NCBI RefSeq assembly: GCF_002127325.2
Contig: NC_035435.2
Coordinates: 14,143,893 to 14,207,892, forward strand
Source: Helianthus annuus
Lineage: Eukaryota > Streptophyta > Magnoliopsida > Asterales > Asteraceae
Direction: 5' to 3'
Length of the DNA stretch: 64,000 nucleotides
The notes beneath the pieces were generated by a model. That model made no database searches and was not told where the DNA came from. It saw only the letters and a list, made by a program, of their open reading frames with translations. Below, piece after piece: positions 3,089 through 63,384 of this stretch. A program made the translations under genes and the position numbers. Each line of letters opens with the position of its first letter. Positions within the stretch are counted from its first letter, which is position 1.

Positions 3089-4011
3089 GTTATCATGAAC
3101 ATTTTTTCCACATGAGATTTTGATTTTATAATCTTAGTATAGCTGTATAGACAAATAATTAAGGATAGAGGAAGTAAGGAAACATAATTATGTAAACCAA
3201 AACCAATTAAGTCATCAGTTTTCAGATTGAAAACTTAATTTGGGTAAAACGGAGTAACTTAATATGTCCTGATAAGGCGATAACACTCATTTTTTATACT
3301 TTGGGTTTTTCAGATTGAAACGGAAACCAAACTGAATTAGAATGTGGTTTTTGATTCGGTTTTTCTAGCTTTGAATTCAATTCGGTTCAGCTATTTTGTT
3401 TCAACCGTGTTAACATGCAAACCATGAATATCAATAGTTGGAAGTATGAAACTATGATACGGGTGCTACATAATACTGGTGATAGTCTCGGATGGTTATC
3501 TTTTTTATTTCATACACTATTCGTAAAACAAAAGTTTTTTTTTTGTTTTGGAACTTTTAGTTTGTAACCACGTCCATGTAGAAAGTTGACAGATATAACA
3601 CAACTCGGTTATATAAAATGGGGTTGCCAAAAGGTTTAGAAGAGATCAAAAATTATTTGTGAAGTTAGAAATGTAAATGTAAAAGTGAGAATTAAAATAG
3701 TTAAATAAATTGTTTCAAATAAATTGGAAGGTCCCGGGAAAATGATAAATGTCAACTGAAAAAAGAGTTTGCATATATGAGAAATCATTAGTAAATTAAT
3801 TGGTTGTTGATGTTTATACATGGATTTCTATGTGAGAAAAACATAGCTAGTTTGTGATACGTTGATAGGCTCGATCTAAATTTAAGAATACTAGTATTGC
3901 GTGCGATAACTTAATAAATAAATATGTGTTTAGTTTCCCATTTCGATTTTTATGGTCAAATATTGAATTCCGACAAAAATAAATTGAGATGTATATTATC
4001 TTTCACACATC
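3089..4011. other. Shared non-coding spacer of unit A
   Basis: AT-rich sequence matching 27930-28852 and 46990-47900 with few differences. No gene, no inverted repeat ends and no convincing coding frame. Confidence 0.7.
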
Positions 4012-4204: not shown

Positions 4205-5361
4205 GTTGCCGCCAAACGATTTCCGATCCAAGCAATCTCCCCAAGAATTTCGAGTACAATTCCTGGATCCATGATTAGGTTGTCTTCCATCTCTTTCCAC
4301 AAGGAGGTTGGCATTATTATCCATGCGTTGCCTAAGATAGGGCTGTATGCATACCAAAACGGTAATTGCTGAAGTAGAACTCACCCAAAGATACGTGTCC
4401 TCCCAATGGTTTATCAAAGTCAATCACACACATGCTCGCAACATGTCTTCGAGTGTCAGGACGGTTCGTTCACTTTGACCGTTTGTACGATGCTCATGTC
4501 TAGACGTGAGCCAAGGGTGTTGTGTGCCGCCTGTCATAAATCAAGCATAGATCAAAATCGAAGGTAACAAAAGTTGGCACCTCGTGCCTAACAGCCGCCT
4601 CTCTTAGAGGAACATTCACAGCTGTGGAGACTCGTCAGTTTCCTTGATTGCAAGAAAGTGTGTCGGTAACGTGAGACAATCAACGATCACAACGTAATAT
4701 TGTTTCCATTTCGAGTTGTGAGTAGGCTAGTGACAGAATCCATGGCAGTCTGTTCTCATTTCCATATGGGTGTTTCTGGTTATTGATACTCCACCTTGAC
4801 TTTCCCACAAGTCAAATATCATTCACATATATAGCCAGGTGGGCCTTCATGCCCGATCACCAGTACGAGATTTATAGATCCTAATAACTCTCATCAAAAA
4901 ACCCAGATGGCTAGAATATCAAGGCCGGTGTGCTTGCTCACACAACTTCCCTACAGTTGTCGTATAATGAGATCCATACTCGTTCCCGGAGGTAGCGAAT
5001 ATCATCCACCTGCCAAAGGTTGCTTCTCCATGCCCCGCATGGGTTCAACTTGAAAATTCTCTTCCTTTTCTCCAGGTTGAAAAGAGCGAGTCCGATCAGG
5101 TGGGTTAGAATCGATAGTGAGCTGCAAAGCCCGCGCACATTTAAGTTTCACAGTCATAATCATCCAAAAGTTCCACCCAACCATGCCATTAACTGATTTA
5201 GCTCTTTCGAAACTAGGGTACACGGGAGGCCCTTATGATCGGTCTAAATAGTGCATTCGGTACCATCCAAGTAATGCCTCCAACTTAAACCCAAAGCCCA
5301 CGGTTTCCACCGCAGGTTGTGTGTCGTGCAGCTCCTCTTCGTAACTCCATTATGTAAGTCA
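4205..5361 (-). pseudogene. Ty3/gypsy pol fragment, integrase/RNase H part (unit A)
   Basis: Minus-strand remnant of a Ty3/gypsy polyprotein, colinear with 29046-30205 in unit B. It continues beyond the CACTA insertion at 19284-20073, where the reverse transcriptase lies. Frames are broken repeatedly by frameshifts and stops. The low-coordinate end abuts the LINE fragment with no 3' LTR, so the element is truncated there. Identity rests on colinearity with the recognisable RT and RNase H motifs in the same orientation. Confidence 0.65.
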
Positions 5362-5364
5362 TCA

Positions 5365-5715
5365 CACTACAAGAAAATGAAGTTATTGCAACCCTAGAAA
5401 AATGTTGCATTAGGCCTTAAAAAGGTTGCATTAGGCCTAATGCAACCCTTTATCAAAAGCTGCATTAGGTGAAGTTGCATTAGATCTAATGTAACCTTTT
5501 TATTAGATAATGCAACCTTTTAAAAAACAGTTGCATTTACTATTCAAATACAACCTTTTTGTAATGCAACCTTTTTATAAGCTAATGCAACTTTTGTAAG
5601 GCTCAAATGCAACCTTATTAACACTCAAATGTAACCTTTTTTAAACTCAAATGCAACTATTATTATATTATTTAGTAAATGATGCAACCTTTTTTACAAT
5701 CAAATGCAACTCTAT
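5365..5715. repeat. CACTA left subterminal repeat region
   Basis: About 15 copies of AATGCAACCTTTT or its complement (GTTGCATTAGG) in 350 bp, facing both ways near the end. Such arrays bind the CACTA TNPA protein in characterised elements; the function here is inferred. Confidence 0.8.
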
Positions 5716-5879: not shown

Positions 5880-6180
5880 CTACTCATCTCTAAAATCTTG
5901 AAGTACTCCAATAGGTATCTTTTCCATTACACTTCGCATTGTATCTTCAAAGTTATCTCATTGGCTCTCAAAATCTTTCTATATAGCATGCTATAGTGAT
6001 TCTTGAAGAAGCACCTGGGCAGTGTTGAACAGCTATTTACAGCACTATCCCTATTCTGAACTTGAGACTCATTTGCTTCAAGTGCAAGGGCTTCAAGATT
6101 AGGAGATGACCCAAACGCAGGTGGTGGATGATGAATGCTGTCATAATACATACATTTTAGAAATGACATAAAAAATCAAA
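5880..6180 (-). other. Exon-like segment of unknown origin inside the CACTA
   Basis: On the minus strand a stretch bounded by plausible AG and GT splice sites (about 6014-6140) reads IHHPPPAFGSSPNLEALALE. A later stretch reads MRSVMEKIPIGVLQDFRDE before a stop. This could be part of a captured gene or the CACTA's own regulatory gene. I do not recognise the family. Confidence 0.25.
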
Positions 6181-6272
6181 TGGTAAAGAAAGTAGGACCT
6201 AAGGACACAAGAAAACTGATTAGTAAATGGCCTAACCGGGCAGTTTGGAATGGACTGAAAGTAGCATAAGAA

Positions 6273-6659
6273 TGTTGGGGAAGATGACCCATATTGACAG
6301 CGGAAGTTGCAGACATAGTTCCATTCATGTTCTCCATTGTTTAGTGTAGAAACGAATAACAGGAAATGAATAACAAAAGAGAGTTGTGTGTGCAGAATTG
6401 GAATCGAAAGGACAAATCTAATGTAACAGAAATGTCTTGGTACCGGACATGGATTCCGGTGACATGAATTTATACTAGGCATTTTGGCGGTTCCGGGATT
6501 TTGGCGGGTAACTGTTTATCACAGTTATTTAAAATGAACTCCCGCTTATCCCTTGATCATTACATATACATATCATAAACTAATCTTATAAGTGTTCCTA
6601 ATTATTGATAAATCCGAAAATATAACAAATATAACATAACTAGTTTAATAATTCTAACA
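6273..6659 (-). repeat. 3' LTR of the CCHC-ARID element
   Basis: Reads TGTTAGAATTATT...CCCCAACA on the minus strand. The polypurine tract (AAGGGGGG, about 6661-6669) directly precedes it on that strand. Confidence 0.93.
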
Positions 6660-6668
6660 TAACCCCCC

Positions 6669-8174
6669 TTAAACTAGGTTATGTTTACGAGCTTGATCCA
6701 TTACGCTGCGATTTGCTTCGTCCATTGCCCATTTTGCATAATTGAAGTTGAAGCGCTTTCTTCGCTTCCCTTTGCTCCAGTCATCATCGTCTACTCCAGC
6801 AAACAGAACGACGGATTCCATCTCAACCGCACTTTGATTTCCAGTTTCTGCATTATTGACCGATCCTGCATTCTTCAAGCCTTCCTGTTGCATGCCTGTG
6901 GATGTTCCTTCGTCCCGAACCATCTTCTTATCCTGCATATTCTGTTGTACATAATTGAAGTTGTAGTAATACTCTAAAACATCAAGGTATGCGGCGTATG
7001 TGGCTCTCATGTAGTCACCATCTTCATAGTTGAAACCCATGTCTTTTGCGATTGCAGGCCAAGTATTCTCGGTTGTCACTGTTTGATAACCCCCATCCAT
7101 GGCAACGAGTAGATATAGGCTAAGTAAATTAACCCTCCTCTTGTATGAATCCACCGGTGGAACTTGCCTAGTTCTTATCCCCATATAACTACATAGGAAC
7201 CATTTTACTAATTCCTCAAATTTTGTATCAAGTATGTGTTTATATTTGATAACAAAATCTCGATCATCAAGCAGATTCATGAAGGCTCGGCAGTCTTCAA
7301 ATTCTCTAAATTCCATGGCGTTGACAATCATGACACTCCAATCCGATTCTTGTGACGACAAATTGAGTTCCTCAAAATAAGAATTCAAATATCTTTGTTT
7401 GAACTCTTCATCAAGAACGTTCTCTTCGATGATCTTTTGCTTTTCTTGTAAACCTAACTCTTCTTCCCGTGTCATCCCACTTGTTTCATTAAACAAGTTG
7501 TTCACCGGGCATGAAAACATCGGATAAATTCTACAAGTATCACCGGCCTTCTTGACCGTGAATCCTTGCAACGTCAATTGATCTAGACTCAATACATTTC
7601 GATCGAGTTCCGGTGAGTAAAAGACGCTTTGAATTCTCATGTTTTCATTTCCGTTTTTTATCTCTATTGATCCAACCCCCCTTGTGAACAGAAAATTATG
7701 TTCCCCCGTGCGTGTATTCACCCCGATTATATGTTTGATTCGTTTGAACACGTTTAAATTTCCGGCAATATGATGTTTGAATACAGAACTTACGTACCAA
7801 ATATCATTCCATAATCCTCCTTCGGTACCAACAACGATCATCTCTTGATGACTGTTGACATCTTCATCTTGTCTCTGTACTCCTTCGTTTATTGCCTGCC
7901 TTATTAATTGTGTTGCTTCATCGGTTTCCTTCCTTTTACACGCATGAATCTTGTGCCCCGGTAGACGGCAGTAGTAACATATCTTTTCTATTGGATTTCG
8001 GTTGTTTTTTTTCTTTGCTTCATCCGTGCAGTGTTGACAAGGAAGTAGCGTAGAGGTTGGTTTGATTTCAGTGTGGTTCATCCTTCCCGGCATCGCTCTG
8101 ATACCACTATGTTGGGGAAGATGACCCATATTGACAGCGGAAGTTGCAGACATAGTTCCATTCATGTTCTCCAT
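6669..8174 (-). CDS. Retroelement protein: CCHC zinc knuckle + protease-like region + ARID domain (501 aa)
   Basis: Single intact ORF of the element. C66-x2-C69-x4-H74-x4-C79 is a retroviral-type zinc knuckle; a CQHC pair precedes it. Residues ~112-230 resemble the Copia protease/pre-integrase segment (WYVSSVFKHHIAG..., later FYSPELDRNVLSLDQL), but the catalytic Asp-Ser-Gly triplet is replaced by Ser-Ser-Val, so protease activity is not expected. Residues ~315-400 match the ARID/BRIGHT DNA-binding fold (VNLLSLYLLVAMDGGYQTVT, then W-x2-IAKDMG and YLDVLEYYY). A basic run KGKRRKR at ~468-474 may be a nuclear signal. The start chosen is the first ATG after the predicted LTR transcription start, in context AACAATGGAG; it lies inside the 5' LTR, and the frame runs through the primer site. 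The stop overlaps the polypurine tract. I recall similar CCHC-ARID predictions from Asteraceae. Function unknown; nucleic-acid binding is inferred. Confidence 0.88.
   Translation of the reverse strand: MENMNGTMSATSAVNMGHLPQHSGIRAMPGRMNHTEIKPTSTLLPCQHCTDEAKKKNNRNPIEKICYYCRLPGHKIHACKRKETDEATQLIRQAINEGVQRQDEDVNSHQEMIVVGTEGGLWNDIWYVSSVFKHHIAGNLNVFKRIKHIIGVNTRTGEHNFLFTRGVGSIEIKNGNENMRIQSVFYSPELDRNVLSLDQLTLQGFTVKKAGDTCRIYPMFSCPVNNLFNETSGMTREEELGLQEKQKIIEENVLDEEFKQRYLNSYFEELNLSSQESDWSVMIVNAMEFREFEDCRAFMNLLDDRDFVIKYKHILDTKFEELVKWFLCSYMGIRTRQVPPVDSYKRRVNLLSLYLLVAMDGGYQTVTTENTWPAIAKDMGFNYEDGDYMRATYAAYLDVLEYYYNFNYVQQNMQDKKMVRDEGTSTGMQQEGLKNAGSVNNAETGNQSAVEMESVVLFAGVDDDDWSKGKRRKRFNFNYAKWAMDEANRSVMDQARKHNLV
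8095..8107 (-). promoter_or_regulatory. Primer binding site, initiator tRNA-Met type
   Basis: Minus-strand TGGTATCAGAGC two bases inside the 5' LTR end, complementary to the 3' end of initiator tRNA-Met, as usual for Copia elements. The ORF is open through it (SGIRA). Confidence 0.9.
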
Positions 8175-8496
8175 TGTTTAGTGTAGAAACGAATAACAGG
8201 AAATGAATAACAAAAGAGAGTTGTGTGTGCAGAATTGGAATCGAAAGGACAAATCTAATGTAACAGAAATGTCTTGGTACCGGACATGGATTCCGGTGAC
8301 ATGAATTTATACTAGGCATTTTGGCGGTTCCGGGATTTTGGCGGGTAACTGTTTATCTCAGTTATTTAAAATGAACTCCCGCTTATCCCTTGATCATTAC
8401 ATATACATATCATAAACTAATCTTATAAGTGTTCCTAATTATTGATAAATCCGAAAATATAACAAATATAACATAACTAGTTTAATAATTCTAACA
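8110..8496 (-). repeat. 5' LTR of the CCHC-ARID element
   Basis: Matches 6273-6659 except at one base (TATCTCAG here, TATCACAG there). It holds the probable promoter and the ORF start codon. Confidence 0.93.
8305..8311 (-). promoter_or_regulatory. TATA box of the CCHC-ARID element
   Basis: Minus-strand TATAAAT in the 5' LTR, about 130 bp upstream of the ORF start. A transcript starting about 30 bp downstream would have ATGGAGAAC as its first AUG by eye. Confidence 0.55.
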
Positions 8497-8583
8497 AAGA
8501 AGACCCTAGGAGTTCCAACCTCATTGAAATTTGACGAGCAAAAGAAACAAAACTGTTGGATATTTTCAATAAAAAAAATTTAC

Positions 8584-9106
8584 CTATTGGCTGGTTGTTG
8601 TGTAGGAGAGCTTAAATAAACTACATCATCAGAGCTGCCATTAGTTGTTGCAGAAACTTGCATATAAACAATGGTTATGCCATCACTTAAAGGGGATGAT
8701 GAACTTTGACTTGGCCAAGACTGTTTCTGCACAGATTTCAATGGCCATTTATACAACGAAGCTAAACTCCGATAGTGAAAAAAGTGCTTGTAACATACAC
8801 AAATTAACTAGCAGTACATTATATTTAGCTAAAATCTTGATTGGCAGGTTCATACCTCAAGTTTTTTTTCGAGGGCAGTTCGGAGCTGCTCAATTTCCTG
8901 AAAATAGGTGCAACAAATTTTCAATCTGAAAGACAAAGTCAAACTAAAAGAGTAGACTTCTTATATAACATAACTTTAGGAGTTCACGAAGATACCTCAT
9001 ATGGCCAACCAACAACCACAAAGACGTCTAATGAGTAGCGATCCACTGTGGAAAAAGCATGTGCTTCTTGGATGTTCAGTCCAACTTCAGCCAGCAATGT
9101 TGTCAA
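8584..9106 (-). pseudogene. Captured exons of an ACT-domain protein kinase gene (STY46/STY8-like)
   Basis: Three exon-like blocks with GT/AG borders on the minus strand. Exon a (8996-9106, 37 codons) includes [20 protein letters not shown] and [13 protein letters not shown]. This is the ACT domain of Raf-like plant STY46/STY17 kinases, which phosphorylate chloroplast transit peptides. Exon b (8856-8897, 14 codons) reads EIEQLRTALEKKLE, the linker after that domain. Exon c (8584-8726) begins KQSWPSQSSSSPLSDG, like the following linker, but its later part is less clear. No kinase catalytic domain is present. Introns are retained, so capture was at DNA level, as CACTA and other DNA transposons do. 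Unlikely to be functional. Confidence 0.75.
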
Positions 9107-12829: not shown

Positions 12830-14340
12830 AAATTGCTCTGTCCGAGTTTTTCTTAGTGTTAAACTTGTCTGAGTTTCTAAAACTCTGTGTTTGTTGTTTC
12901 CGGGGTTTTGGTGAACTAGTGTGAAGTCACACTAGGGAGATAGTCCGGAGACTTGATTCTTCTGAGCTTCAGTTTGTCTGAGTTTATGTTTCAGCTAAAT
13001 AAATTGTCTGAGTTTTGGTTTTAAGTGTTCTGAGTTTCCAATAGTCTGAGGTTTAACCTCTATTCAATAGTCTGAGTTTCCTTTAATTGTTTGTTGTCGC
13101 CGAGTCCTACACAAGGGTAGTCTCCGAGTTTTTGAGTTTATTTGGTTCCGAGTTTTCAGGCTTAAAACAGTTAGCAGTTTTTAGATGTGAGGTAAAAGCT
13201 AAAACAGTTATCAGTTGTAGTTGATATTCCGAGTTTCAGGCTATGTCTCCGATTTTTCCTTATAATCGTATATGTCCAAGTTTTGTCTCATGTATCTCCG
13301 AGTTTATTCAGTTCCAGCTCCCAGCTCCGAGTTTCTTGTGTGACAACTCAGAGCTCAGTTCCGAGTTTTTTAAACTTTGTACTCTCCGAGTTTTGAGTTT
13401 TCAGTACCGAGTTTTTATAACACAAACAGTCTGACTTTCGACATCCCTAGCTCAGAGTTTATGCAGATTCTGTTCGATAGTGGTCCGAGGTTTGATCATC
13501 ACTTTTACGTCTCTGAGGTTCCGAGTCTTTTTTGTTCCTATCTGTTTCCGAGTAACAGTCTTTTTATTCCGAGGATTGTGTCTCCGAATTTTTTTTTTTA
13601 AGTTTTTTTTGTTGTTTGGTCCGAGTTTATACCGAGTTTTGAAAAAGATTTCTGCTCCGAGGTTTGACCTCTCAACAGTCAAAATCAAATCAGAGGACCG
13701 AATTTTGACTTACACAGTTCCGAGGTTTGACCAAAACATTATGCTCCGAGTTTTGACCAAACGTTCCCGAGTTTTTGGTTTAAAAGTTAATGCTCCGAGT
13801 TCTTGGAACTCTTTGGGACCGAGTTTTACTCGAGGGTAGTCTCCTAAATGTGTTAACGGTTCTGACTTTTACAAGGGTTTTGTCTCCGAGTTTTAATATC
13901 AATGTTGACATGTTGACTGTATGTTATGTTCCGAGTTTTAATACATCATCTACACAGAGTTTTGATGTCGATCATAGCTTTGAGGTTATAGGTCAGAAGT
14001 TTGATAAAATGTTCCGAGTTTCAATCATTCAATAGTCCGAGTTTTAACAAGCTGTTGTTCCGAGTTTTATATATCTTCAGCTTCTCCGAGTTTTACATAT
14101 GGCTCGATGTTTTTGCAGTATCCGAGTTTTTCTATCAAAACAGATCTGAGTTTTCAACAACTGAGTTTTCAACAAGTATCAAGTTCTGAGTTTTTATGTC
14201 AAATGATGTTAAATGATCAGTTTCCAAGCTTTATAGACGTTAATGTCTGTGTCCTCTGTTCTCCGAGTTTCAGTCTCTTATGTCAGTCGATGTTGTTATT
14301 CCGAGTTTTTGAGAGCGGATTGTTATTCCGAGCTTTTGAG
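12830..14340 (+). repeat. Dense array of degenerate TCCGAGTTTT motifs
   Basis: Several dozen copies of (T/C)(C/T)(C/T)GAGTTTT, spaced irregularly at about 20-50 bp and all on the same strand. The spacers are unrelated. The motif starts in the LTR (near 12243) and resumes after the receiver fragment (14880-15010). No tandem period, so this is a motif cluster and not a satellite. Open frames across it (for example 13480-13839) are weak and lack domains. Confidence 0.85.
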
Positions 14341-14348
14341 AGACGGTG

Positions 14349-14836
14349 ACACGACGTCGTTTGGGATACCGAAGCAGATTGTGGTATACGAGCTAGAGAA
14401 GTTGAGTATTTTTAATGAAACGGCGTCGTTTGGTGAGGGTTTGAACTTGAAGTTTCCGGTGATTGCGAAACTGTTGGTGGCTGACGGTAGTGCGAAATTG
14501 CATAAGATGTTGTTGGTATTTATCAATGAGGGTTTCGAGTGCTTGAGCTCGCTCGGGCCCACAATGAGCCCGTTTTACGTCGTGATTTTGAATCTCCACA
14601 TGCCTGAGATGGACGGCTTCGAAGTTGCCACACGGACTCGTAAGTTTCGTAGCCGTAATCGACCGTTGATTATTGTGACTGCGAGCGCTGAAGAACAAGT
14701 GTGGGAGCGATGTTTGCAAGTGGGGATGAACGGGGTGATCAGGAAACCGGTTCTGTTGCAAGGCTTGGAAAATGAGCTTCGAACGGTTTTACAACGAACT
14801 GGTGATCGGTTATGGGTTTTTCGGATGTCTTTGCTT
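14349..14836 (+). pseudogene. Captured receiver-domain fragment of an ethylene receptor (ETR2/EIN4-type)
   Basis: The open frame includes FECLSSLG, VVILNLHMPEMDGFEVATR, KFRSR, TASAEEQVWERCLQVGMNG and VIRKPVLLQGLENELRTVL. This is the C-terminal receiver domain of subfamily-II plant ethylene receptors. In the functional domain the phospho-acceptor sits in LDLHMPE; here it reads LNLHMPE (Asp to Asn). One residue is missing before TAS, and the N-terminal part of the domain is degenerate. Lysine of the RKP motif is kept. No sensor, GAF or kinase part. It lies inside the LTR element, with the TCCGAGTTTT motif cluster on both sides. Confidence 0.85.
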
Positions 14837-16117
14837 GTTCTGAATTTCTTTGTACTCTAAGTACTATTCCGATGATCTGATTCGAGGTTTCAAGAGCTTT
14901 CGGGTTTTACAAGTTCCGAATTTTCTAAGCTTCCGGGATACCTGGGGTACCGGATTTTTAACTAAGTTTAGAAGCTTGTGTAGTTCGGAAGTTTCGAGTT
15001 GTGCATGTTCCGAGTTTTTCTAGTTATTCCGGGTTACCTGGGGTACCGGATAACTAACTAAGAGTCTGAATTATGCGTAGTTTGAAGACTTGAGGTCGGT
15101 TTTGGATTATCGAAAAGTTTTATGGTACTTATGTTGTCCGGATCAAGTGAGGAGGTGAAGAGAATAAGGCTTGCTTGAATTCTGGTATTGTTTACAAAGA
15201 AATAGGGGGAGTAAGAAATTCTGAAATTCCTGTTTTCTTTGTAAACAACAAGCTCGTGGTGCTACATCGAAACAAGTTCATGTTTACTATCCTTGAGATC
15301 AACTGAGTGTTAATCTTAACGGTGGCGAAGTGTTTAAAACATGAAGCAAGTTAGAGCTCGTGTATGATTGAGTTTTGTCAAGTTTGTTCGAGGTTCAATC
15401 AAGTGTTAACGTGATGAAGCAAATTGTTCGTTTGGCAACTAGTTGAAGGTCATGCCTTTATAGTATGCCGGTTAGAGTAGAGAAGATTAGTCTTCTTGGT
15501 ACCTCTTCCAAGTTGGTGACTGATCGGATTCTCGAAATAGGGGTTCTTACATTGAGGGGGAGATCAGAGACGAAAGTCATCGGGTAATTGGTGGATTTGT
15601 GAAGATACGAGATTGGATCTTGAAGATTCGAGATGAAATGATTTCAGACACTCGGTTGAAGACTCTAATCAAGATGGTGGATGTACTTTTACAAAGTTCA
15701 GTTTGTTATTAACTTATCGAACTGAGCTTCATGTCTTTGTGAAGTTTGAAGTGTTCAAGGTTAGGCATTGGAAATCCAATGTTTCTTTCTGCTACCAGTT
15801 AGGTTTGAAGATTAATGTATCGAGCGATATTCCTACATGTGGTTGTAGGTCGGTTCGCGTTAATTTGATTCGGGAGTAGTTTGAGGGGGAGGATCTATAG
15901 TGTTCGATGTTGGATTCTTCGGGTTTCTCAAAGCGGCCTTAAGTGATCGTCAGCAAGTCTTTAATTAGAAGGGTTGAAGATCGCTGTGCTCTACCTAAAA
16001 GATCAAGTCTCAGCCAAAGTTGAAAGCTGACATGATATCTTCAGTTAAAGGGGAGTCTCTAAGTGCAGTATCCGTGATTGAAGATTATCGATGCCACACA
16101 GAACTGATGCAACAGTT

Positions 16118-47904: not shown

Positions 47905-49522
47905 CATCATGTTTATGTTTGACTTCGATAGGGTGTTTAATAAATTTTATGATGAGGGTACTTTTTCGCGTGGGTGCTCGTCGTCTTACATTACAGTCTA
48001 AGGATCCGATGGACATGGGGGACTACCGTGCTATCAATCTTGTTAGTATCATTAATAAAGTTGTTTCTAAAGTCTTGGCTAACCGGCTTAAGCAGGTCAT
48101 TCGCAAAGTGATTTCGGAGTCGCAGACGGCGTTTTTAAAGGACAGATTAATTCTTGATGGCCCGCTCATCCTCAATGAAGCGATTGCTTGGGCCAAGAAG
48201 AGTAGGTACAAGGCCTTTCTTTTTAAAACTGACTTTGCTAAAGCTTATGACAACGTTAATTGGGAGTTTGTCAATTCTGTCATGAGCCAAATGGGGTTTC
48301 CTTTGTCAATGGATTTATGGAATTCTCTCCACGGCTAGGTCTTCGGTTCTCGTTAACGGATCTCCAACCTTCGAATTTCAATGTTTCAAAGGTATGAGAC
48401 AAGGAGACCCGATTTCCCGTTCCTTTTTCTCCTTGTGATGGAAGCATTTTCTAGTATGTTGAAGAAAGCTGGGATGGTGGGTGCCGTTAGGGGATTGGTT
48501 TTACCTAATGAGGGACCGACTCTCACTCACTTATTATACGCGGACGATTATGTGATTATGGGAGAATGGGGGATTAATAATATTAAGAATGTTGCTCGTT
48601 TACTGAGTTGCTTCTATCTAGTTTCTGGCCTCAAGATTAATTTAAGGAAGTCGAGTCTGGTTGGGTTGGGTTTGTCGCAGGCAGAGGTTACGGATATGGC
48701 GATCATTGTATTGTTAACTGTAAAGTGGGAGAGATCCCTTTTATCCATCTTGGGGTTTTTGGTGGGTGCGAAGATGCATAGAATAATTAATTGGAAATCG
48801 GTGTTTGACTACTTTGAGGCTAGGCTTGCGTTGTGGAAATCCTCATTGTTGTCTATAGGGGGAGAGTGACGCTTATTAAGTCGGTTTTGGAAAGCATTCC
48901 TAACTATTTTCTCTCCTTGTTCAAAGCGCCATCTTGGGTTATTATAGGGTTAGAGAAGATTATTAGAAGGTTTTTATGGGGAGGGAATAGCTCGACTAAT
49001 AAATTTGATTGGGTTTCTTGGCATCGGGTGACGGCTCCGACGGATATGGGTGGTATTGCATTATCTAAACTCTGAAGTATTAACATGGCTTTACTTTCAA
49101 AATGGATTTGGCGGTACCGACATGAAGACTTTGGGTTATGGAGAATGGTTATTGACTCCATTCATCTGTCTAAACAGTGTTGGAGTTCGGTGCCTTGTAA
49201 CAAGACTGTCAATAGCATTTGGAAAGGCATTGTTTCTGCGGTGGATAAAACGAAGGTTGGTGACACAAGTTTAATTCATAATTTCAGAGGTAAGGTGAGT
49301 GACGGTAGAAAAATTAGATTTTGGTTAGACCCTTGGGTTTGCAATGTGCCGCTGAAGGATAAATTCCCGCTTTTATTCCGGATCGAATCAAATAAGAGAT
49401 GTTGGGTCTGTGATCATTACAACATATCGGCCCAGGCTTTTGTGGATTTTTGGGAGTGGAACCAGCCCCCCAGCTCTGAAGCGGAAATGTCTGAGTGGTT
49501 GGTGTTAGGCCCTAAAGTATGA
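47905..49522 (+). pseudogene. LINE (L1-type) ORF2 remnant with reverse transcriptase
   Basis: Continues where A and B break off: VSKVLANRLKQVIRKVISES, QTAFLKDRLILDGPLILNEA, LFKTDFAKAYDNVNWEFVN, GMRQGDPIS, LLYADDYVIMG (the RT catalytic YADD is kept), SGLKINLRKSSLVG, RVTLIKSVLESIPNYFLSLF and KWIWRYRHEDFGLWRMVI. These are RT motifs and the downstream region of plant L1 ORF2. At least three frameshifts (about 48330, 48420, 48850) and a stop near 49075 break it. The endonuclease is absent upstream and the end of ORF2 is missing. Confidence 0.88.
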
Positions 49523-62469: not shown

Positions 62470-63384
62470 GTTTTCTCTAGGGGTTTCAACCAGATCTTTT
62501 TTGAAATGATATCTGACATCTATATGTTTGGTTCTAGAGTGATGAACAAGATTTGTGGTTATTGCAATTGCACTCATAGAATCACACAAAATAGGAATTT
62601 TTGTCATATTTACTCCATAATCTTTTCGTTGAGTTTGCATCCACAGAACTTGTGAACAACAGCTTGCTGCTGCTAAGTATTCTGATTCTGTTGTGGATGT
62701 GGCAACACAATTTTGCTTTTTGCTTGCCCAACAGACTAATTTCTCTCTCAACATTTGACAGGCACCAGATGTGCTTTTTCTGTCAATTTGCATCCTGCAT
62801 GATCTGCATCTGTGTATGAAATTAGTTCTAAATTTATGTTCTTAGGATACCATAGGTTAAGATTTGAAGTTCCTTTTAGCTATTTAAAAATTCTTTTCAC
62901 AGCTTTCATGTGTGAATCTTTAGGATTACATTGATACCTTGCCAGAAAACAGGTAGAAAACATTATATCAGGTCTGCTGGCAGTTTGGTATAGTAGTGAT
63001 CCTATCATTCCTCTATAAGTTTTTATATCTACAGGTTTTCCTTCTGGATCAGAATCTAGTTTGTTTCCAGTGGCCATGGGAGTTTTTGAAGATGAGCATT
63101 TTTCTAGTGAATACTTTTTCAAAATTGTTCTGACATACTTTGATTGACTCAAAAATATGCCATCACTTTGTTGTTTTTCTTGTAAGCCAAGGAAAAAAGT
63201 TAATTCACCTATCATACTCATTTCAAAGTGGCTGGTCATCGGTTTCTCAAACTTTTTGCAGAATTTATCATTAGTGGATCCAAATATTATGTCATGAACA
63301 TAAATGTGAACCAATAGTGTGTGCCCCTTATGTGTTTTTAGAAAGAGGGTTGTTCAATTGTACCTTTGGAGAAGCCAGAATTGA
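62470..63384 (-). pseudogene. Copia reverse transcriptase/RNase H remnant
   Basis: Minus strand. RT: VHIYVHDIIFGSTNDKFC, where canonical YVDD is YVHD (a catalytic Asp is lost), ELTFFLGLQ, DGIFLSQSKYVRTILKKY, TYRGMIGSLLYQTASRPDIM. RNase H (62793-62475): CWASKKQNCVATSTTESEYL, ILCDSMSAIAITTN, HSRTKHIDVRYHF. A frame break separates the two near 62800-62880. The upstream RT, integrase and gag are cut off by the LTR starting at 63385. Confidence 0.88.

What the first reader, a model, noticed from the sequence alone, without database searches (positions are those of the whole stretch)
6273..8496. Complete mini LTR retrotransposon encoding a zinc-knuckle + ARID protein
All structural marks are present: 387-bp LTRs with one difference by eye, 5-bp TSD, primer site and polypurine tract. 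The only gene joins a retroviral-type CCHC knuckle and a Copia-protease-like block to an ARID DNA-binding domain, which is normally a chromatin/transcription domain. An LTR element carrying a sequence-binding domain instead of pol could steer its cDNA or RNA, act on host genes, or be an acquired gene spreading as a parasite. I recall CCHC-ARID proteins as a large predicted family in Asteraceae; this copy suggests that some or all are retroelement-borne.
Basis: partly seen in the sequence, partly recalled or inferred. Interest (0 to 1): 0.88.

Follow-up and report, generated by a model that had tools for sequence, protein, structure and literature searches.

The report
Mini-retrotransposon family carrying a chromatin-protein domain
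In sunflower, a small copy-and-paste DNA element has a piece resembling a plant chromatin protein (ARID) where its replication enzymes should be, shows strong natural selection to keep that protein, and has its products listed in databases as ordinary gene regulators.

Summary
Of 44 non-tandem copies examined with LTR pairs, 38 have perfect 5-bp TSDs and 15 have identical LTRs. The protein is a retroviral zinc knuckle, a retropepsin-like block without the catalytic Asp (0 of 54 relatives) collinear with sunflower Copia pol, and an ARID (40.3 bits, cut-off 24.1). Selection is strong: pooled dN/dS about 0.12, against no codon bias in the LTR/PBS-coded N-terminus. The copies' LTRs date to at most about 1.2 My, so selection must act on the element lineage. 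Two copies of a subfamily at about 50% protein identity are also complete LTR elements. The enzyme donor, DNA binding and the exact job of the ARID remain unshown. Nine paper searches showed no description of it.

The parts
6268..6272 (.). target-site duplication AAGAA, left copy
   Evidence: flank ...AAGAA before 6273
8497..8501 (.). target-site duplication AAGAA, right copy
   Evidence: flank AAGAA... after 8496
6273..6659 (-). 3' LTR (element sense), 387 bp, TGTTAG...CCAACA
   Evidence: 386 of 387 bases identical to the other LTR
8110..8496 (-). 5' LTR (element sense), 387 bp; holds a TATA-like box and the ORF's start codon
8305..8311 (-). TATAAAT, putative TATA box of the 5' LTR (LTR position 186)
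   Evidence: promoter function inferred
8095..8106 (-). primer binding site TGGTATCAGAGC (initiator-Met tRNA type, name recalled), 3 bp inside the 5' LTR; read in frame as part of SGIRA
   Evidence: LTR-PBS junction pattern at 1283 places genome-wide, reversed control 0 (these include Copia elements)
6663..6670 (-). polypurine tract AAGGGGGG, overlapping the stop codon of the ORF
   Evidence: PPT-LTR junction pattern at 128 places genome-wide, reversed control 0
6669..8174 (-). single ORF, 501 aa
   Evidence: selection
7938..7979 (-). CCHC zinc knuckle CYYCRLPGHKIHAC, residues 66-79
   Evidence: knuckle motif in 59 of 61 long relatives; family profile weakly resembles Ty3 and HIV nucleocapsid, E about 0.02-0.06
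7515..7862 (-). retropepsin-like block without catalytic Asp, residues 105-220
6951..7244 (-). ARID domain, residues 311-408
6753..6773 (-). basic cluster KGKRRKR, residues 468-474, possible nuclear localisation signal
   Evidence: basic cluster near the C-terminus in 53 of 63 relatives; function inferred

Best explanation
It is a non-autonomous, Copia-derived LTR retrotransposon family of sunflower. SHOWN: LTRs, PBS, PPT and TSDs; no integrase, reverse transcriptase or RNase H match; one intronless gene whose product keeps the knuckle and a catalytically dead retropepsin block of a Copia polyprotein, and carries an ARID where integrase-RT-RH would be; young copies; long purifying selection on that product. 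INFERRED: the LTR promoter makes one RNA, translated from an ATG in the 5' LTR straight through the PBS. The knuckle binds the element's own RNA, the dead protease serves as a folding or dimer module, and the ARID with a basic tail holds the complex at nuclear chromatin. Capsid, RT and integrase come in trans from Copia elements with the same PBS and LTR ends. Because the family encodes its own adaptor and the adaptor is selected, it must favour its own RNA or cDNA (cis preference), most likely at the nuclear or chromatin step, i.e. nuclear delivery, choice of chromatin, or keeping its LTRs transcribed.
For: Structure. Family: 86 scored of 10434 candidates; 36 of 40 scored LTR hits lie at loci, 2 more have mini spacing; 85 matches with P0123, 42% identical to the window; no locus shared. 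Age: K2P median 0.0026, 15 of 44 identical LTRs, max 0.024. TSD in 38 of 44 and 2 of 2 of another subfamily. ORF at least 485 aa in 32 of 44. dN/dS 0.11-0.13 in the four bins with dS above 0.03; Pol_BBD part 0.05-0.06, ARID 0.04-0.13. Codon-position control: LTR/PBS-coded residues 1-27 ratio 1.00, Pol_BBD part 0.18, ARID 0.29. Singletons 52% nonsynonymous against 28% of shared changes, neutral 72% (cluster of 18). Dead site: WYLDSG (2) or WYLDNG (1) of three Copia elements against WYVSSV; no D in 54 of 54 relatives with a residue there, 9 gapped. ARID. Likely host-type source: profile 74 bits to L082.
Against: No helper was identified: no pair of LTR hits has the spacing of an autonomous element (40 scored of 281 candidates; one pair is 10.5 kb apart, around a broken ARID copy), and 20 of 20 sampled PPT junctions are ARID-family. 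The ARID is slightly acidic, so DNA binding may be weak. No targeting is visible at chromosome scale. In the 9-copy cluster singletons and shared changes do not differ (39% against 34% nonsynonymous, p 0.45). Copies were ranked by protein similarity, which biases dN down somewhat, and pairs are not independent. 12 of 44 copies lack a long ORF.
Confidence: 0.6

Rival explanations
1. The ORF is a neutral passenger: only the LTRs, PBS and PPT matter, and the protein does nothing for the element.
For: Non-autonomous elements without any ORF (TRIM, LARD; recalled) spread well; 12 of 44 copies have shorter ORFs.
Against: dN/dS about 0.12 and codon-position bias in every part of the ORF after residue 27, none in the LTR/PBS-coded part; reading frame kept between subfamilies at about 50% identity.
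Confidence: 0.04
2. A host gene family, domesticated or duplicated, that happens to lie between repeats; selection is for host function.
For: Databases name the proteins 'putative transcription factor interactor and regulator CCHC(Zn) family' or 'chromatin remodeling ARID family'.
Against: Copies are bounded by matching LTRs and copy-specific TSDs and have LTRs of at most about 1.2 My, whereas the most distant copies are near saturated at silent sites (pooled dS 1.5); host selection on single loci cannot produce that.
Confidence: 0.02
3. The protein is a trans-activator or anti-silencing factor: the ARID sits on LTR chromatin and keeps the family transcribed.
For: ARID is a chromatin and transcription domain (established); basic C-terminal cluster in 53 of 63; the LTR carries a TATA-like box.
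Against: No binding data; ARID net charge -2; the conserved knuckle and dead protease point to RNA or particle roles as well.
Confidence: 0.25
4. The protein targets integration, as chromodomains do in chromoviruses (recalled): the ARID tethers the helper's intasome to chosen chromatin.
For: The ARID lies where integrase-RT-RH would be in a Copia polyprotein; loci lie closer to chromosome ends than uniform (31 of 80 in the outer 10%, 16 expected, KS p 1e-4).
Against: 42 Copia loci with frames of 1000 aa or more are as distal (22 of 42; p 0.23) and the P0123 subfamily is less so (19 of 77; p 0.009); flank GC of 35-36% is close to the window's 37%.
Confidence: 0.15

Closest known systems
TR-GAG elements (terminal-repeat retrotransposons with a GAG domain)
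   Same: two LTRs and one ORF from the gag side of a polyprotein, no pol; six TR-GAG transcripts were reported in sunflower (PMC9784723; outline, abstract and passages seen)
   Different: no capsid family was found here; the ORF runs from a knuckle through a dead protease into an ARID; ARID occurs 0 times in that paper's main text
Gene-transducing LTR elements such as maize Bs1 (PMC7264820, passages seen)
   Same: host-gene sequence inside an LTR element
   Different: that review says such transduced ORFs are present in one or a few copies; here the fused ORF is at 157 loci at least, in several subfamilies, and under purifying selection
Plant LTR elements with conserved additional ORFs (Grande, Retand TRP28, PvRetro13 SMC; PMC7264820 and PMC11963269, passages seen)
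   Same: a conserved nuclear or DNA-binding-type protein carried by an LTR element
   Different: those are extra ORFs, the examples named antisense between pol and 3' LTR of elements that have or had gag-pol; here the chromatin domain is fused in sense to knuckle and protease remnants and is the only gene
Chromoviruses (chromodomain on integrase; recalled)
   Same: a chromatin-reader domain carried by an LTR element
   Different: no integrase, and the domain is ARID
Domesticated GAG-host fusions HadGAG1-3 of sunflower (PMC9784723, passages seen)
   Same: fusion of a retroelement gag part with a host domain
   Different: those are LTR-less genes of 4-10 exons; these are intronless and LTR-bounded

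Membership tests
LTR retrotransposon | matching LTRs with TG..CA ends, PBS, PPT, TSD | tested here: met
   window copy; 38 of 44 copies with perfect TSD
LTR retrotransposon | own reverse transcriptase and integrase (autonomous) | tested here: not met
   only Pol_BBD, ARID and a sub-threshold zf-PHD-like match in Pfam; internal region is 1450 bp
Copia (Ty1) superfamily | Copia-type polyprotein homology, knuckle then protease | tested here: met
   residues 66-207 collinear with three sunflower Copia elements, E 1e-18 to 2e-13; Pol_BBD
Copia (Ty1) superfamily | order integrase before RT in pol | not testable with these tools
   the element has no pol
TR-GAG | ORF with a capsid (GAG) domain | tested here: not met
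   only ARID, Pol_BBD and zf-PHD-like match among 63 relatives at E 0.001
TRIM / LARD | no coding capacity (recalled definition) | tested here: not met
   501-aa ORF under purifying selection
Active aspartic protease | catalytic Asp (D-S/T-G) | tested here: not met
   aligned site is S in 33, N in 20, R in 1, gap in 9 of 63; WYLDSG or WYLDNG in the three Copia elements
ARID domain family | profile score over cut-off | tested here: met
   40.3 over 24.1 bits; 61 of 63 relatives match at E 0.001
ARID domain family | ARID fold | tested here: met
ARID domain family | DNA binding | not testable with these tools
   net charge -2 here, family median -1 of 61 leaves it open

The most novel reading that the evidence does not exclude
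A class of retroelement that lives without any enzyme of its own but encodes a selected chromatin-binding adaptor (nucleocapsid-dead protease-ARID), with which it takes over another Copia's enzymes in favour of its own copies and places or keeps them in chosen chromatin; a parasite of a parasite built on a stolen host chromatin domain, old enough to have diversified to about 40-50% protein identity and active within the last million years.
Probability: 0.45. Interest if true: 0.87.

Novelty: new variant of a known kind. Interest (0 to 1): 0.74.

Why it matters
Non-autonomous LTR elements are usually seen as passive RNA parasites. Here one carries its own protein, fused to a chromatin domain, and silent-site statistics indicate that the element lineage depends on it. 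That makes cis preference and chromatin choice testable with a 501-aa protein. Practically, at least some, and probably many, of the 'CCHC(Zn)' and 'chromatin remodeling ARID' genes annotated in sunflower are products of this mobile element and would need to be set apart in transcription-factor counts and expression studies.

Full report
THE OBSERVATION. The two LTRs (6273-6659, 8110-8496) are 387 bp and differ at one base, the 5-bp duplication is AAGAA, and on the minus strand the PBS TGGTATCAGAGC lies 3 bp inside the 5' LTR and the PPT AAGGGGGG just before the 3' LTR. The internal region is 1450 bp with a 501-aa ORF. Its start codon lies in the 5' LTR (LTR position 323, 137 bases after the start of a TATAAAT), it is read through the PBS (SGIRA is the PBS in translation), and its stop codon touches the PPT.

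THE HOST. The genome has 17 large contigs summing to 3.00 Gb. Several contig lengths equal those printed for Helianthus annuus proteins (173346949, 208320189, 195042445, 174800439), so this is common sunflower.

THE FAMILY. A protein search of the genome scored 86 copies of 10434 first-look candidates. I read 50 loci (L001-L050), a part of the 86. Six were set aside (five in tandem arrays and L032 without an LTR pair), leaving 44. Of these 38 have a perfect 5-bp TSD: 37 by script and L041 on re-reading. Six have none; three of those have a damaged 3' LTR end. LTR divergence is small: median K2P 0.0026, 15 of 44 identical, maximum 0.024, i.e. at most about 1.2 My at an assumed 1e-8 per site and year (in a few copies the script's LTR borders were some tens of bases short). 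An LTR-only search scored 40 places: 36 at loci, 2 more at mini spacing (C11:176.09M), and 2 at C8:10.6M in a shorter copy not read. A search with the relative P0123 (42% identical to the window) gave 85 matches, none at a locus; together 157 distinct loci. The LTRs of the P0123 subfamily were not read, though some of its loci stand in tandem at 1812-1875 bp. A PPT-LTR junction pattern occurs 128 times, reversed control 0; 20 of 20 sampled places outside hold ARID-family sequence, mostly decayed. Among the genome's 150 best ARID matches, 88 lie in open frames of 400 aa or more and at least 15 are loci by coordinates; of the rest only two were checked. Those two, from a subfamily about 50% identical to the window's protein, are complete: LTRs of about 346-356 bp (99.1 and 99.7% identical), ARID and Pol_BBD over cut-off, perfect TSDs TTACT and CTAAG (flanks read by eye), a PBS (one base off in L080).

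SELECTION. On 32 of 44 copies, those with ORFs of at least 485 aa, pooled Nei-Gojobori dN/dS is 0.13, 0.13, 0.12 and 0.11 in rising dS bins above 0.03 (the top bin from 200 of 260 pairs) and 0.24 on the 2 pairs below; the Pol_BBD part is at 0.05-0.06, the linker 0.04-0.05, the ARID 0.04-0.13, the C-terminus 0.14-0.17, residues 1-60 0.37-0.45 in those four bins. By codon position, the LTR/PBS-coded residues 1-27 show no bias (1.00), which serves as an internal control; Pol_BBD 0.18, linker 0.22, ARID 0.29, residues 28-60 0.51 and 406-470 0.54 do. In the 18-copy cluster, changes private to one copy are 52% nonsynonymous and shared ones 28% (p 1e-6; neutral 72%); in the 9-copy cluster 39% and 34% (p 0.45). 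Selection therefore acts while the element multiplies, and in the larger cluster is partly relaxed after insertion. Limits: copies were picked by protein similarity, which lowers dN, though hardly to a tenth; pairs are not independent.

HOW IT WORKS. Shown: it was mobile in the recent past, lacks enzymes, and its protein is kept by selection. Inferred: enzymes come from Copia elements. The LTR-PBS junction (1283 places in all) is shared with at least two long-frame Copia elements, one of which has the same terminal TGTTAGA and CCAACA, but no full element with the family's LTR or PPT was found. That the lineage keeps its own protein implies that the protein helps its own RNA or cDNA more than others'. 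Knuckle plus ARID suggests a bridge from element RNA or cDNA to chromatin. I give about 0.6 to the composite account; the activator and targeting variants have about 0.25 and 0.15 as rivals. Against targeting: the chromosomal spread is no more distal than Copia's. Against DNA binding: the ARID is slightly acidic.

KNOWN OR NEW. It is closest to TR-GAG and to gene-transducing LTR elements, but has no capsid domain and keeps an ARID under selection in many copies. Databases list the relatives as 'putative transcription factor interactor and regulator CCHC(Zn) family' or 'chromatin remodeling ARID family' of Helianthus, with a few other names. Nine paper searches showed no description of an ARID-bearing LTR element; most subscription journals and bioRxiv preprints are not in that library.

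On re-reading the calls I narrowed the LTR-search, ARID-count and annotation statements and added; the odds did not need changing.

Noticed in passing
G000:C14:167083343-167088462, C6:55569080-55574153, C1:89442561-89445904, C13:40759021-40762298, C11:150079358-150086302, C1:4987553-4993420: Tandem arrays of the element or its ORF/PBS (2 to 4 units, period 1811-1949 bp) recur at several loci, as from LTR-LTR recombination. For C1:4.99M only one unit was read (L078), for C11 and C6 none.
   Followed up: partly
P0042, P0043, P0118, P0142, P0157: Database gene models fuse element ORF parts with host genes (glucosyltransferase, inositol-polyphosphate multikinase, NPH3, receptor-like kinases). P0043 equals the ORF of L079 for 482 residues and then turns into the kinase; splicing from the element or misprediction.
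   Followed up: partly
L079:239-2343, L080:301-2385: A deep subfamily has LTRs beginning TATTAG instead of TG, yet perfect TSDs in 2 of 2 copies: non-canonical LTR ends.
   Followed up: partly
L046:1412-1585 and 3831-4004; L050:3827-4174 and 5073-5420: L046 shows 174-bp direct repeats (98.9%) around its LTR ends; L050 has a 348-bp perfect direct-repeat pair starting near its LTR end, perhaps another mini LTR element inserted.
   Followed up: no
window 14237-14857 (+): One open frame joins an inositol 1,3,4-trisphosphate 5/6-kinase fragment and a response-regulator domain, like captured gene fragments.
   Followed up: no
window 48357-48866 (+), 62883-63353 (-); similar frames at 3983, 28824, 47880 (+): Fragments of other retroelements: an RVT_1 match (below cut-off) and an RVT_2 match (Copia type), and three like-sequenced frames.
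   Followed up: no
window 5927-6169 and 8583-8929 (-): Exon-like open stretches flank the element on the same strand, so it may sit in an intron of a host gene (read by eye).
   Followed up: no
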